The notes beneath the pieces were generated by a model, which ran no database searches, was not told where the DNA came from, and saw only the letters and a program-made list of their open reading frames with translations. Below, piece after piece: positions 17,216 through 22,793 of a DNA stretch of 35,637 nt (its first letter is position 1; each line of letters begins with the position of its first letter). The position numbers and the translations under genes are program-made. The stretch comes from Myxococcota bacterium (lineage in GTDB: Bacteria > Myxococcota_A > Polyangia > Polyangiales > Polyangiaceae). The DNA lies in the NCBI GenBank assembly GCA_963169165.1, contig CAUJFL010000331.1, positions 1-35,637 on the forward strand, in the 5' to 3' direction.

Positions 17216-20200
17216 ATGACCGACAGCGCGCTCCGCGACATCGTCCTCGGCATCGACGTGGGCTCGACCACCGTGAAGATCGTCGCGGTCGACCCCTCGA
17301 CGAAGGAGATCCTCTGGCGCGACTACCAGCGCCACCAGACGAAGCAGCCCGAGAAGGTGCTCGAATTCCTCGAGCGCATCGAGGCGGATCTCGTCGGCGT
17401 CGGCAAGCCGAAGGAGACGTGGCGCGCGTTCGTCACGGGCTCGGGCTCGGGCCCGCTCGCGGGGCCGATCGGCGCTAAGTTCGTGCAAGAGGTCAACGCG
17501 GTCACGATGGCGGTCGAGCACCTGCACCCCGACGTCGGCTCGGTCATCGAGCTCGGCGGGCAGGACGCCAAGATCATCATCTTCAAGCAGGATCGCCAGA
17601 CCGGCGAGCGCACGCCCATCGCGTCGATGAACGACAAATGCGCGTCGGGCACGGGCGCCACGATCGACAAATGCATGATCAAGGTCGGCGTCGCGCAGGA
17701 GATCGCCAACGCGCTCGACTTCAACGGCGAGAAGATCCACCACGTCGCGGCCAAGTGCGGCGTCTTCGCCGAGACGGACATCGTCAACCTCGTGAAGAGC
17801 GGCATCCCGTCCGACGAGATCCTCTGCTCGCTCGCCGACGCGATCGTCCTGCAGAACCTCTCGGTGCTCACGCGCGGCAACACGCTCAGGCACAAGGTGC
17901 TGCTGCTCGGCGGGCCCAACACCTACCTGCCGTTCCTGAAGCAGTGCTGGCAGCTCCGCATCCCGCAGACGTGGGAGGAGCGCGGCTACGACTACCCGAA
18001 GGACGTCCCCATCGACGAGCTCGTGTTCGTCCCGAAGAGCGCCGAGTACTACGCGGCGCTGGGCGCGGTGCTGTTCGGCCTCGGCGAGCCCGCCGACGTC
18101 GGCGTCTACAAAGGCAAGGACGATCTGCTCCAGTACATCACGCACGGGCGCAAGGCGCGCCTCGGCGAGAGCGCGGCGGGGCCGCTGGCGAAGACCACCG
18201 ACGAGCTCGAGGAGTTCAAGGCCGCGTACCGCATCGCCAGGTTCGAGCCAAAGCGCCTGTCGCAGGGCGAGGTCGTGCGCGCGGTCATCGGCCTGGACGG
18301 CGGGAGCACGTCGTCGAAGGCGGTGCTCATCGCCGAGGACGGCACCATCATCCAGAAGGCCTATCAGCTGTCGAAGGGCAACCCGATCGCTGACACGAAG
18401 GAGCTGCTGACCCAGCTGCTCGGCTACGTCGAGGGCCAAGGCGCGACGCTCGAGTGCCTCGGCTTCGGCGCGACGGGCTACGCGGCCGACGTGCTGCAAG
18501 AGGCGCTGCTCGCCGACGTCAACGTCGTCGAGACCGTGGCGCACATGATGAGCGCCGTACACTTCTTCGGCGACGTCGACGTCATCTGCGACATCGGCGG
18601 GCAGGACATCAAGGTCCTCTTCATGAAGAACGGCGACATCGCCAACTTCAGGCTCTCCAACTCGTGCTCGGCAGGCAACGGGATGCTGCTGCAGGCGATG
18701 GCCGATCAGTTCGGGATCCCCGTCACCGACTACGCCGACACGGCGTTCCAGGCCGAGCTGAGCCCCAAGTTCAGCTACGGCTGCGCCGTGTTCCTGGACA
18801 CCGATCGGGTCAACTTCCAGAAGGAGGGCTTCTCCAAGGAGGAGCTGCTCTCCGGCCTCGCGCAGGTGCTCCCGAAGAACGTGTGGCAGTACGTCGTGCA
18901 GATCCCCCGGATGGCTTCACTTGGCAAGACGTTCGTCTTGCAGGGAGGCACACAGTACAACCTCGCGGCGGTCAAGGCGCAGGTCGACTACATCAAGGAG
19001 CGCGTGCCCGGCGCGCGCGTGTTCGTCCACCCGCACACCGGCGAGGCCGGCGCGATCGGCGCGGCGATGGAGACGCTGCGCGTCGTCAAGCGCAAGGGGA
19101 GGTCGTCGTTCGTCGGCGTCCGCGCGGCGATCGACCTCGAGTACTCGACGAAGAACGACGAGGAGACGGTCTGCCACTTCTGCCCCAACGAGTGCAAGCG
19201 CACGTTCATCGACACGCGCCGCCCCGACGGCACCTCGACCCGCTACATCGCCGGGTTCTCGTGCGAGAAGGGCACGGTCGAGTCTGAGGAGGCGATGCTG
19301 GCGCTGGTCGCCGACCGAAAGAAGATCGCCAAGGAGTTCCCCAACGCGCTCGACTACGAGGCCAACCTCGCGTTCAGGTCGTTCTACAAGCCGGCGCCGC
19401 TGCCCGAGCACGGATCGCCGACCGACGACGTCGAGGTGAAGCGCGGCTTCTTCGGCCTGCGACGCGCCGAGATCCGCCGCCCGTTCGTCTCGAGCGGCAA
19501 CGCCAACCGCGACAAGCTGCGGCGGACGCGCGTCGGCATGCCCCGCGTGCTCAACATGTACTCGACGGGGCCGTTCTTCAGGACCTACTTCGAGGCGCTC
19601 GGCATGCCGAAGGCCAACGTGGTCTTCAGCGATCAGACCACCGAGGAGAGCTGGGTCGAGGGAGGCAAGTACGGCTCCATCGATCCCTGCTTCCCGTCGA
19701 AGGTCGTACAGTCGCACATTCACAACCTGCTGTTCCACCAGCACTCGGCCGACAAGCCGCTGAAGTACGTATTCTTCCCGATCCTCACGCACGTCGACAC
19801 GTTCGTGAAGAACACGATGGACAACGCGAGCTGCCCCATCGTCGCCGGGACGCCCGAGGTGATGAAGGCCGCGTTCACGAAGGAGGTCGATTTCTTCGCG
19901 CAGCGCGGGATCGAGTACGTCGATCCGCCGCTGTCGTTCGTCGAGCCGACGCTGCTGCGCCGGAGGATGTTCGAGATCTGGGGCCCTCGCCTCGGCATCA
20001 CCGAGGACGAGAGCGATTTCGCGTGCCGCGAGGGCATGAAGGCGATGAAGGAGTTCGACCGCGACGTGCAGGAGAAGGGCCGCGCGATCCTCGAGACGGT
20101 CGAGGCGGAGAGCAAGGTCGCCATCCTCGTGCTGTGTCGCCCGTACCACGGAGATCCCGGCCTGAACCACGGCATCCCCGAGGAGTTTCAGGTGCTCGGG

Positions 20201-20870: not shown

Positions 20871-22793
20871 ATGACGATGGAACCCCAGGACCACAAGCGC
20901 CGCCTGCCGCTCACCGGCGACACCGCGGCTTCACGCCACGCCGACATCGACGCGGAGCTCGCGCAGTTCGAGGCCGCCGAGCGCGAGCGCCTCGGCCTGA
21001 TCGACGCGCGGAGGCAGTGGGTCGACACGATGCTCGACGGTCAATTCAAGGCTGGCAAGCGCGCGGAGACGACGCTGCTGATCGGCGGGCTCACGCTCGC
21101 GCACGACTTCTTGATCGAGGGGGGTCTCCGCGGCCTCGGATACCAGGTCAAGCATTTCGACTCGCCCGACAACGAGGCGCTCCGCTACGGCAAAGAGTTC
21201 GGCAACCGTGGGCAGTGCAACCCGACCTACTACACCGTGGGCAACCTGGTGAAGTACCTCTGCAAGCTCCGCGACGAGCAGGGGTGGACGACCGCCGACA
21301 TCATCGACAAGCACGTCTTCGTCACGGCCGGCGCGTGCGGGCCCTGCCGGTTTGGCATGTACGTCACCGAGTACCGAAAGGCGCTGCGCGACGCCGGGTT
21401 CGAGGGCTTCCGCGTGCTGCTGTTCCAGCAGAAGGGCGGCTTCTCGCAGGCGACGGGCGCCGACGCGCCCGGCCTCGACATGAACACCGACTTCTTCGTC
21501 ACGCTGGTGAAGGGCGTCGTCATCGGCGACGTGCTCAACGCGCTCGCGTACCGCCTCCGCCCGTACGAGATCGAGAAGGGCGCGACCGACCGGGCCCTCG
21601 AGGCCGCGAAGAAGCACGTGTACTCGGCGTTCGTCGAGCACACCTCGATGCTGAAGGCGCTGTGGAGGAGCCGCAAGGAGTTCGAGGCCGTCAAGGTCGA
21701 CCGCCTCCGCGCCAAGCCCAAGGTCAGCGTCATCGGCGAGTTCTGGGCGATGACCACCGAGGGAGACGGCAACTACCAGCTCTACAAGTTCCTCCAGGAC
21801 GAGGGCGCCGAGCCCGACATCCAGCTCGTGACGGCGTGGCTGCTCTACTCGATCTGGGAGGGCCGCCACGACACCCACGACAGGCGCGATCTGCGCGGCG
21901 CCGACACGTCCTACTACGGCCTCGGCGCCATGGAAAAGGAGACCGACGTCGCGAAGCGGCTCGCGATCCTCCGCGTCGCCGACGCGGGCGCCCGCGTGCT
22001 GTTCCAGTCCTTCGCGCACCTGCTCGGGTTGTATGGGTACACGCTCCCCGACATGGACGTCATCGCCGAGGTCTCCGAGCGCTACTACTCGAACGATCTC
22101 CGCGGCGGCGAGGGCCACATGGAAGTCGGCAAGCTGATCCTCAACGGCTTGCACAAGAAGGCGCACATGACCATCAGCGTGAAGCCCTTCGGTTGCATGC
22201 CGAGCGCGTCGGTGTCCGATGGAGTGCAGTCGATGATCTCCGAGCACTTCCCGGGGTCGATCTTCTGCCCTGTGGAGACGAGCGGCGACGGGCGCGTCAA
22301 CTTCTACTCGCGCATCCAGATGTACCTGTTCAAGGCGCGCGCGGCCGCCGAGGCCGAGCTCGACGAGGCGCTCGCGACGTACGGCGTCACGCGAGAGCAG
22401 GTGCGTGACTATGTCGAGCGTCACCCCCGCCTCGGCGGCGCGTTTCACAAGTCGCCGCACATGGCGGCGGGCGCCGGCGCCGATCTCGTGCACGAGGTCG
22501 GGCCGTTGCTCACGCAGTCCGCGGCGACCCGCGGCTGGCGTCGCGTGAAGCGCGCGGCCGCGGGCGTCGCCGCCACGGGCCCGCGCGCCGTCGACCTGGC
22601 CAAGCGCCTCTACGCCGACGCGCCCGAGATCGCGACGCGGCTCGGCCACGATCTCGAGGTCGTGCGCGATCTCGCGCTCAGCCAGGGCAAGACGCTGTCG
22701 CCGCTGTTCGGCGAGCTGCTCGCGAAGGCGATGCTGCCGAGGGACGAGGGCGCGCACGAGCACGCGCACGCGCACGCCGCCGCGGCGGAGTGA
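20871..22793 (+). CDS. 2-hydroxyacyl-CoA dehydratase / benzoyl-CoA reductase BcrC-HgdB-like protein
   Basis: A 640-residue presumed partner of the fused activase. Such proteins bind a [4Fe-4S] or double-cubane cluster and carry out ATP-driven low-potential reductions or radical dehydrations. The recognisable part holds several cysteine motifs that could bind a cluster: GNRGQCNPTYYTVGNLV (C116), TAGACGPCRFGMY (C156, C159) and, in the second half, KPFGCMPSASVSDG. The GxCxPxR-type sequences match the family, but the protein is longer than HgdB or BcrC (about 380-430) and has a distinct charged N-terminus. The tail ends in a histidine-rich EGAHEHAHAHAAAAE. No CoA-transferase or acyl-CoA gene is adjacent, so the substrate, and whether it is a CoA ester at all, is unknown. 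Confidence 0.85.
   Translation: MTMEPQDHKRRLPLTGDTAASRHADIDAELAQFEAAERERLGLIDARRQWVDTMLDGQFKAGKRAETTLLIGGLTLAHDFLIEGGLRGLGYQVKHFDSPDNEALRYGKEFGNRGQCNPTYYTVGNLVKYLCKLRDEQGWTTADIIDKHVFVTAGACGPCRFGMYVTEYRKALRDAGFEGFRVLLFQQKGGFSQATGADAPGLDMNTDFFVTLVKGVVIGDVLNALAYRLRPYEIEKGATDRALEAAKKHVYSAFVEHTSMLKALWRSRKEFEAVKVDRLRAKPKVSVIGEFWAMTTEGDGNYQLYKFLQDEGAEPDIQLVTAWLLYSIWEGRHDTHDRRDLRGADTSYYGLGAMEKETDVAKRLAILRVADAGARVLFQSFAHLLGLYGYTLPDMDVIAEVSERYYSNDLRGGEGHMEVGKLILNGLHKKAHMTISVKPFGCMPSASVSDGVQSMISEHFPGSIFCPVETSGDGRVNFYSRIQMYLFKARAAAEAELDEALATYGVTREQVRDYVERHPRLGGAFHKSPHMAAGAGADLVHEVGPLLTQSAATRGWRRVKRAAAGVAATGPRAVDLAKRLYADAPEIATRLGHDLEVVRDLALSQGKTLSPLFGELLAKAMLPRDEGAHEHAHAHAAAAE

What the first reader, a model, noticed from the sequence alone, without database searches (positions are those of the whole stretch)
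17216..22793. Two-gene ATP-driven reductase system with a fused double activase
Seen: one 1208-residue protein carries two complete BcrA/HgdC-type ATPase domains, each with both cluster cysteines (C142/C181, C484/C523), then a further four-cysteine motif and DUF2229-like and HgdB-like parts. The next gene encodes a 640-residue BcrC/HgdB-like partner with several cysteine motifs. Known: characterised relatives are 2-hydroxyglutaryl-CoA dehydratase (HgdC/HgdAB), benzoyl-CoA reductase and the double-cubane cluster proteins; activases usually work as homodimers of one ATPase domain. Inference: the fusion makes a built-in pseudo-dimer and the pair does a low-potential reduction on an unknown substrate. 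No CoA-transferase or aromatic-degradation gene is near, and the rest of the window does not look like a strict anaerobe.
Basis: partly seen in the sequence, partly recalled or inferred. Interest (0 to 1): 0.78.

Follow-up and report, generated by a model that had tools for sequence, protein, structure and literature searches.

The report
ATP-driven lipid-reductase relative in aerobes
Two neighbouring genes of an uncultured myxobacterium belong to a sister branch of the iron-sulfur enzymes (PlsA and Ger) that anaerobic bacteria use to turn ester bonds of membrane lipids into ether bonds; nearly all searched genomes with this branch carry a respiratory-oxidase gene, and the pair is predicted to do a similar ATP-driven reduction there, on a substrate that is likely a membrane lipid but is untested.

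Summary
ORF 17216-20842 (1208 aa) has two complete activase ATPase domains, a four-cysteine linker and a DUF2229 reductase half; the adjacent 640-aa protein is the second reductase half, with no Pfam or NCBIfam hit but a HadC/BzdN/DCCP-like predicted fold. The layout, Act1-Act2-Red1 + Red2, is the published one of plasmalogen synthase PlsA(R) and glycerol ester reductase Ger, so the fused double activase itself is known. The window's pair belongs to a long-stemmed Myxococcota clade that is sister to, not inside, PlsA/Ger; the two-activase arrangement predates that split. All 14 putative cluster cysteines are kept. Of 222 genomes 73 have gene 1 and 71 of these gene 2 (both exceptions stop at a contig end); in four genomes both are kept though unlinked. 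Genomes with the two-gene type carry a strong haem-copper oxidase hit (68 of 69); Myxococcota with only the fused type mostly do not (9 of 36). Best reading: an oxygen-respirer branch of the ester-to-ether lipid reductases with remodelled cluster surroundings. Against it: no lipid gene found as a regular neighbour, no association with the plasmalogen desaturase CarF, no biochemistry. New variant of a known kind.

The parts
17216..20842 (+). gene 1: fused double activase + first reductase half (Act1-Act2-Red1), 1208 aa
   Evidence: homologues
17240..18115 (+). Act1: first BcrA/HgdC-type ATPase domain (about residues 9-300), cluster cysteines C142 and C181
   Evidence: PF01869 (second stretch; place 17246-17917); cysteines and ATP motifs conserved
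18278..19099 (+). Act2: second ATPase domain (residues 355-628), cluster cysteines C484 and C523
19172..19264 (+). four-cysteine linker C653-x2-C656-x3-C660-x22-C683, a candidate extra [4Fe-4S] site
   Evidence: four cysteines invariant in 76 rows and in 23 of 23 two-gene and 28 of 28 PlsA/Ger rows
19520..20560 (+). Red1: DUF2229 module, first reductase half, cysteines C825, C873, C1066
   Evidence: PF09989; profile match to HgdB/BcrBC-type proteins and to Red2
20561..20839 (+). C-terminal extension of gene 1 (residues 1116-1208), charged by sequence; beyond the Red1 match
   Evidence: domain map; only its first 15 residues were in the modelled stretch
20871..22793 (+). gene 2: second reductase half (Red2), 640 aa, 28 bases downstream of gene 1
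   Evidence: model pLDDT 81, pTM 0.80
21063..22340 (+). Red2 core (residues 65-490) with C116, C156/C159 and C442; C156 is typical of the two-gene clade
22383..22733 (+). C-terminal helical extension of Red2 (residues 505-621), poorly conserved; possible membrane contact is inference only
   Evidence: secondary structure; weak conservation and hydrophobic moments

Best explanation
The two genes encode the four conserved modules of the PlsA/Ger family (two activase ATPases and two iron-sulfur reductase halves) split over two proteins, and they are predicted to form an ATP-driven complex that likely reduces an ester bond of a membrane lipid towards an ether bond. Predicted mechanism: the covalent activase pair would hold one [4Fe-4S] cluster between Act1 and Act2; ATP hydrolysis would push one electron at a time past the four-cysteine linker site to the clusters of the Red1-Red2 heterodimer; there an ester carbonyl bound at an open cluster site would be reduced to a ketyl-type intermediate and dehydrated (vinyl ether) or reduced further (alkyl ether). 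Shown here: modules, conserved cysteines and ATP motifs, shared ancestry with PlsA/Ger, constant pairing of the genes, and their presence in oxidase-bearing Myxococcota genomes. Inferred: the complex, the clusters, the electron path, the lipid substrate, and use at low oxygen under control of the TetR regulator seen at some loci.
For: Same module set and order in one ORF at 79 of 80 genome loci of fused relatives, and as published for PlsA and Ger. Act1 groups with PlsA/Ger Act1 (100) and Act2 with PlsA/Ger Act2 (97); the concatenated tree makes the clades sisters, support 100. All 14 cluster cysteines are invariant in 23-24 two-gene loci and 28 PlsA/Ger rows; ATP motifs of both sites are kept wherever the two-gene rows are complete. 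Partnership: of 222 genomes 71 have gene 2, 73 gene 1, 71 both; four of the 71 keep both though unlinked. TetR-family gene near the pair in 11 of 24 loci, as reported upstream of pls in Enterococcus faecalis and other facultative anaerobes (PMC9702350). A PlsA from Lactococcus cremoris works aerobically in E. coli (PMC12838417), so oxygen is no absolute bar. PlsAR homologues were already proposed to make ether lipids in the acidobacterium Solibacter usitatus, in a study that varied O2 (PMC10087280).
Against: The clade is outside PlsA/Ger on a long stem (2.08 changes per column), room enough for a new substrate; in the Act1 part of the domain tree the order of the two-gene clade and the two PlsA/Ger clades is unresolved. 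46 positions of gene 1 are fixed differently from PlsA/Ger, more often near the activase cluster cysteines (18 of 41 against 28 of 138 doubly conserved columns). No neighbour but the TetR gene recurs at more than 5 of 25 loci, and none that I annotated is a lipid gene (not all were annotated; overlapping opposite-strand frames were taken as shadows). No association with CarF/TMEM189 (25 of 73 against 40 of 149, p 0.27), though the own genome has one. No biochemically proven sequence (Thermotoga, Desulfatibacillum, C. perfringens) could be put in the tree. My paper searches listed no title or abstract start tying ether lipids to these genes in Sorangium or Polyangiaceae (listings only). Cluster geometry was not measured.
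Confidence: 0.5

Rival explanations
1. An ATP-driven reductase of the same superfamily whose substrate is not a glycerolipid ester, for instance a CoA thioester, a quinone-like or a natural-product substrate; the PlsA/Ger likeness is only shared architecture.
For: Long separate stem; remodelled residues near the activase cluster cysteines; own extra cysteines C156, C244, C458; no lipid gene seen as a regular neighbour; no CarF association.
Against: The nearest characterised clade acts on phospholipid esters (papers); all cluster ligands and the Red1/Red2 core are shared; none of the recurring neighbours that I annotated is a CoA-pathway gene.
Confidence: 0.35
2. An electron-activating or redox-stress system without a catabolic or lipid product: the activase-reductase unit repairs or primes another iron-sulfur enzyme at low oxygen.
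For: Carried by oxidase-bearing genomes; TetR neighbour at 11 of 24 loci; no dedicated pathway neighbours seen.
Against: Red1 keeps only three conserved cluster cysteines, as in substrate-binding halves of the superfamily (that meaning is recalled); no client protein is evident.
Confidence: 0.08
3. A benzoyl-CoA reductase or accessory of the anaerobic benzoate pathway of this genome.
For: The genome carries BcrC-, BcrB-, BcrA- and BcrD-like genes and two downstream-enzyme-like genes on contig C48.
Against: That operon has all four subunits by itself; Act1/Act2 of the window lie far from BcrA/BcrD in the tree; benzoyl-CoA equivalog models score far below cut-off for gene 1; the gene 1 type occurs in 21 family codes (read).
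Confidence: 0.02

Closest known systems
PlsA/PlsR, plasmalogen synthase of Clostridium perfringens and PlsA of Enterococcus, Lactococcus, Listeria
   Same: Act1-Act2-Red1-Red2 modules and all 14 cluster cysteines in the relatives compared; in C. perfringens also a two-gene operon (PMC8788747); TetR neighbour in facultative anaerobes
   Different: About 29-32% identity; sister clade, not member; 1208 + 640 aa with extensions; residues around the activase cluster cysteines differ
Ger, glycerol ester reductase of Thermotoga maritima (Tmari_0479) and Desulfatibacillum alkenivorans
   Same: Two activation domains 'BB' with reductase halves
   Different: Ger of D. alkenivorans is one protein of 159 kDa, from an anaerobe; its sequence could not be put in the tree here
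Class I benzoyl-CoA reductases BcrABCD / BzdNOPQ / MbdONPQ
   Same: Two activase and two reductase subunits (recalled); fold of Act2 and Red2
   Different: Four separate proteins, single activase domains, CoA thioester substrate (recalled); distant in the activase tree
2-hydroxyacyl-CoA dehydratases HgdABC / HadBCI and double-cubane cluster protein DCCP/DCCP-R
   Same: Activase and reductase folds
   Different: Homodimeric single-domain activase (recalled); DCCP model NF040772 does not hit the partner

Membership tests
PlsA(R)/Ger ester-to-ether lipid reductases | Two activase domains, DUF2229 reductase half and second reductase half in that order | tested here: met
PlsA(R)/Ger ester-to-ether lipid reductases | Cluster cysteines (2+2 activase, 4 linker, 3 Red1, 3 Red2) conserved | tested here: met
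   23 of 23 (gene 1) or 24 of 24 (gene 2) two-gene loci and 28 of 28 PlsA/Ger rows at each position, window counted apart
PlsA(R)/Ger ester-to-ether lipid reductases | Falls inside the clade that holds Clostridium, Enterococcus and Listeria PlsA-type proteins | tested here: not met
   concatenated tree: two-gene clade 100, PlsA/Ger clade 100, sisters; Act2 agrees (100 and 99); in Act1 the two-gene clade is separate (99) but its place beside two PlsA/Ger clades is unresolved; roots are midpoints
PlsA(R)/Ger ester-to-ether lipid reductases | Grouping with the biochemically proven sequences themselves | not tested
   those sequences could not be fetched; Clostridium species, Enterococcus raffinosus and a Listeria plasmid copy stood in
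PlsA(R)/Ger ester-to-ether lipid reductases | Forms vinyl or alkyl ether lipids from diacyl lipids | not testable with these tools
   needs expression or deletion and lipidomics
HgdC/BcrA/BcrD activases | CoA_E_activ / BcrAD_BadFG domain with both cluster cysteines | tested here: met
   TIGR00241 190 bits over cut-off 125; PF01869
HgdAB/BcrBC reductases | Partner matches the family's curated models | tested here: not met
   no Pfam or NCBIfam hit at E 0.1
HgdAB/BcrBC reductases | HadC/BzdN-type fold of the partner | tested here: met
Double-cubane cluster protein DCCP | NF040772 equivalog | tested here: not met
   not listed for the partner

The most novel reading that the evidence does not exclude
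Oxygen-respiring myxobacteria carry their own branch of ATP-driven ester-to-ether lipid reductases, split into a fixed activase-reductase pair and rebuilt around its iron-sulfur clusters (including a clade-wide extra cysteine, C156, beside the Red2 ligand C159) so that a superfamily known for its oxygen sensitivity works in cells that breathe oxygen, giving them an O2-independent route to ether lipids beside ElbD/AGPS.
Probability: 0.3. Interest if true: 0.78.

Novelty: new variant of a known kind. Interest (0 to 1): 0.55.

Why it matters
Enzymes of this superfamily drive very low-potential reductions (recalled) and are reported as highly oxygen-sensitive (PMC12838417). A conserved branch held by Myxococcota with terminal oxidases would show how such chemistry survives beside oxygen respiration; named carriers include Sorangium and Nannocystis (their oxidases were not checked here). 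It would also add an unrecognised source of ether lipids in a phylum where ether lipids are linked to development (recalled for Myxococcus). It gives curators a function lead for a large unnamed protein set: the 640-aa partner has no Pfam family although 7944 homologues scored in one capped search.

Tried and rejected
A benzoyl-CoA role was considered when BcrCBAD-like genes turned up on contig C48; rejected because that operon has all four subunits and its activases are far away in the tree.

CarF (PF10520) was tested as a sign of alkyl-ether lipids: no association (25 of 73 against 40 of 149). This counts against the lipid reading or says nothing, since CarF users may use ElbD.

The window gene 31834-33318 looked like AGPS (FAD_binding_4) but scores best as GlcD-like, below that model's cut-off. 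Stop codons flagged inside gene 2 of some genomes did not break the Red2 core where I looked: the loci of G012, G009, G063 and G015 (L134, L142, L143, L162) have it in one open frame; the other flagged genomes were not checked. Profile comparison of Red2 with HgdB-type proteins was weak (probability 0.6%), so that kinship rests on fold and on Red1-Red2 likeness (probability 57%). VIA-align rows for the first protein were filled by actin-fold proteins, so Red1's fold was barely tested. The duplication reading of Act1/Act2 was dropped to 'arrangement predates the split': single-domain activases fell beside the Act2 rows (91), so tandem duplication and fusion of two activases are both open.

Rows dropped or judged by eye: L126 (no gene 1 beside gene 2) and L150 (truncated Act1) were left out of the concatenated tree. 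27 of the reference loci L007-L094 were used in the trees, not all. classes were set by me: 'two-gene' means a strong gene 1 hit; G002 and G093 were called fused without a visible row, G079 was left out, G027 counts as two-gene though it also has a second, less alike split copy, and G068 and G074, with short fragments 73% and 67% identical to gene 1, were counted as neither. The TetR profile was built from two-gene loci, so it is biased to them.
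Full report
OBSERVATION. Gene 1 (17216-20842, 1208 aa) and gene 2 (20871-22793, 640 aa) are adjacent, same-strand genes with coding-type composition. Gene 1 carries PF01869 twice and PF09989 once. Gene 2 hits nothing in Pfam or NCBIfam at E 0.1 and no PDB sequence at E 1. 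The host assembly is 84.6% complete; a gene 1 homologue 94% identical is labelled a Polyangiaceae MAG. The own genome has one gene 2 match.

RELATIVES. tblastn against plasmids found 35 records with gene 1 matches and 8 with gene 2 matches; those covering most of gene 1 are fused or split homologues in Haliovirga, Listeria, Fusobacterium, Collinsella and Clostridia at about 25-30% identity. A genome scan gave 80 named loci (best 80 of 581); 79 have two activase domains, DUF2229 and Red2 in one ORF. By layout and host these match the PlsA/Ger family of the papers. [quoted passage not shown] PMC11150832 (passages) gives Ger as 159 kDa and reports mono- and diethers on expression. PMC8788747 (passages) describes plsA-plsR and the proposed chemistry: two sequential electron reductions, then protonation and dehydration. 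PMC12838417 (passages) names Act1, Act2, Red1 and Red2 and reports aerobic plasmalogen formation with the Lactococcus cremoris enzyme. PMC11868695 (passages) reports Mss and Ger hits in 12 Myxococcota MAGs, so Ger-like genes in this phylum are not new as such. Also seen as passages: PMC10191378, PMC10087280, PMC9702350.

PHYLOGENY. In a tree of 140 activase rows the Act1 domains of two-gene loci group with PlsA/Ger Act1 (100) and the Act2 domains with PlsA/Ger Act2 (97); the two-gene clade itself has 99 and 100. The two-activase arrangement is therefore older than the split between the clades. Single-domain activases (BcrA, BcrD, YjiL and others) fell next to the Act2 rows (91), so the tree does not show whether Act1 and Act2 arose by duplication or by fusion. 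The concatenated tree of 66 systems puts 24 two-gene systems, the window among them, in one clade (100) on a stem of 2.08 changes per column, sister to 28 PlsA/Ger systems (100). Both are quick-mode trees, SH-aLRT support only, rooted at the midpoint for drawing, with long-branch warnings for outlying rows. Two further groups of fused Myxococcota homologues lie outside; in these the ATP motif of Act1 is partly degenerate, and one linker cysteine (C656) is lost in the smaller group.

PARTNERSHIP. Gene 2 relatives occur in 109 of 235 Myxococcota genomes at E 1e-5 and gene 1 relatives in 107 of 222 at E 1e-20; both counts mix the two-gene and fused types. Counting strong hits only, of 222 genomes 71 have gene 2, 73 have gene 1, 71 have both and 149 neither. 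The two exceptions, G190 and G214, have gene 1 within 48 and 314 bases of a contig end on the side where gene 2 would lie (coordinates). In 61 of the 71 the genes start within 6 kb of each other. Of the other ten, G128 and G189 have the rest of gene 1 beside gene 2; G087, G142, G182 and G199 are at contig ends; G014, G073, G115 and G099 have room on the contigs and keep the genes apart (contig lengths), G099 with a second partial gene 1 as well. Keeping both when unlinked argues for a joint function.

OXYGEN. Of 209 genomes searched with PF00115, those with the two-gene type (strong gene 1 hit) have a strong oxidase hit (E <= 1e-100) in 68 of 69, the exception being an 80%-complete genome with a weaker hit; those with only the fused type in 9 of 36; those with neither in 97 of 104. 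By my reading the two-gene type spans 21 family codes and the oxidase-poor fused-only genomes 13, sharing one (f22). The right statement is that the fused type tracks oxidase-poor genomes while the two-gene type lives in the oxidase-bearing majority. It does not show that the enzyme works in oxygen, and genomes are not independent samples. PF00115 also covers nitric oxide reductases (recalled), which is why weak hits were kept apart.

REGULATION AND NEIGHBOURS. Among coding-like neighbours at 25 loci, the most frequent beside the pair is a TetR-family gene (10 loci; Pfam confirmed the 7 tested). With a profile made from these it lies within 3 kb at 11 of 24 two-gene loci, on the opposite strand in 10, at 3 of 16 fused Myxococcota loci and 9 of 87 other loci; the window has none. 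Groups 2, 4 and 5 overlap the pair on the other strand and were taken as shadow frames. Other groups recur at 3-5 loci at varying places; three of them (a phosphatase, an unnamed protein, an O-methyltransferase) share the same 3 loci. PMC9702350 (passages) reports a TetR/AcrR-like regulator directly upstream of pls in Enterococcus faecalis and other facultative anaerobes, not in strict anaerobes, and calls it potentially O2-sensing. The parallel supports a shared role but the sensing is untested. CarF shows no association.

WHAT SETS THE CLADE APART. 46 positions of gene 1 and 10 of gene 2 are fixed differently from PlsA/Ger. Among doubly conserved columns of gene 1, those within 10 residues of an activase cluster cysteine differ in 18 of 41, others in 28 of 138 (p 0.004; a 6-residue window gives p 0.016; residues 1-630 alone give 0.007 and 0.028; no correction for the choice; no such effect in gene 2, p 0.44 and 0.47). 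C156 of gene 2 is present in 24 of 24 two-gene loci and 4 of 28 PlsA/Ger, C458 and C244 of gene 1 each in 23 of 23 and 0 of 28. C156 may add a fourth ligand to the Red2 cluster or protect it; that is inference, and the four PlsA/Ger carriers include a Clostridium, which argues against a link with oxygen alone.

VERDICT. It works like an activase-reductase pair of the benzoyl-CoA reductase type (very likely, by family) and most likely on a lipid ester (about even odds). It should not be filed as PlsA or Ger, since it failed the clade test. Novelty lies in the separate, constantly paired, oxidase-associated clade, not in the fused double activase, which is known. The checking round changed facts (duplication, neighbours, BCR cut-offs, unlinked genomes) but none that moved the odds.

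Noticed in passing
L005 (own genome, contig C48) 6651-14258: BcrC-, BcrB-, BcrA- and BcrD-like genes in a row (BcrB over its NCBIfam cut-off, the other three below theirs), with a dienoyl-CoA hydratase-like and a 6-hydroxycyclohexene-carbonyl-CoA dehydrogenase-like gene (both below cut-off) and, at 5979-6638, an iron-sulfur repair gene (ric, over cut-off), in a genome that also has a haem-copper oxidase hit: predicted facultative anaerobic benzoate degradation.
   Followed up: partly
own genome G000 contig C291 10482-10976: CarF/TMEM189-type lipid desaturase (PF10520, E 2e-50), an oxygen-dependent step of aerobic plasmalogen synthesis in Myxococcus (recalled).
   Followed up: partly
window 26771-29219: Two WbuX-like N-acetyl sugar amidotransferase genes face away from each other with overlapping 5' ends, followed by a HisF/WbuZ-like gene with a 200-aa N-terminal extension (29236-30723).
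   Followed up: no
window 22826-24507: NamZ-type exo-beta-N-acetylmuramidase and a thioesterase-like gene (below cut-off) directly downstream of the pair; no homologue of either was found among the neighbours compared at the other 24 two-gene loci.
   Followed up: partly
L153-L156, L159 and L144, L146, L148, L149, L151, L152, L157, L158: Two groups of fused Myxococcota homologues in which the ATP motif of the first activase domain is partly degenerate while its cluster cysteines are kept: possible pseudo-ATPase half of the dimer.
   Followed up: partly
L160 (G216, f9): At this Nannocystaceae-like locus (closest named relatives) the gene order is reversed, the Red2 gene upstream of the activase gene.
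   Followed up: no
G027 contig C190 16832-21096: A second, less alike split system (41% and 27% identical to genes 1 and 2) in a genome that also has the two-gene type.
   Followed up: no
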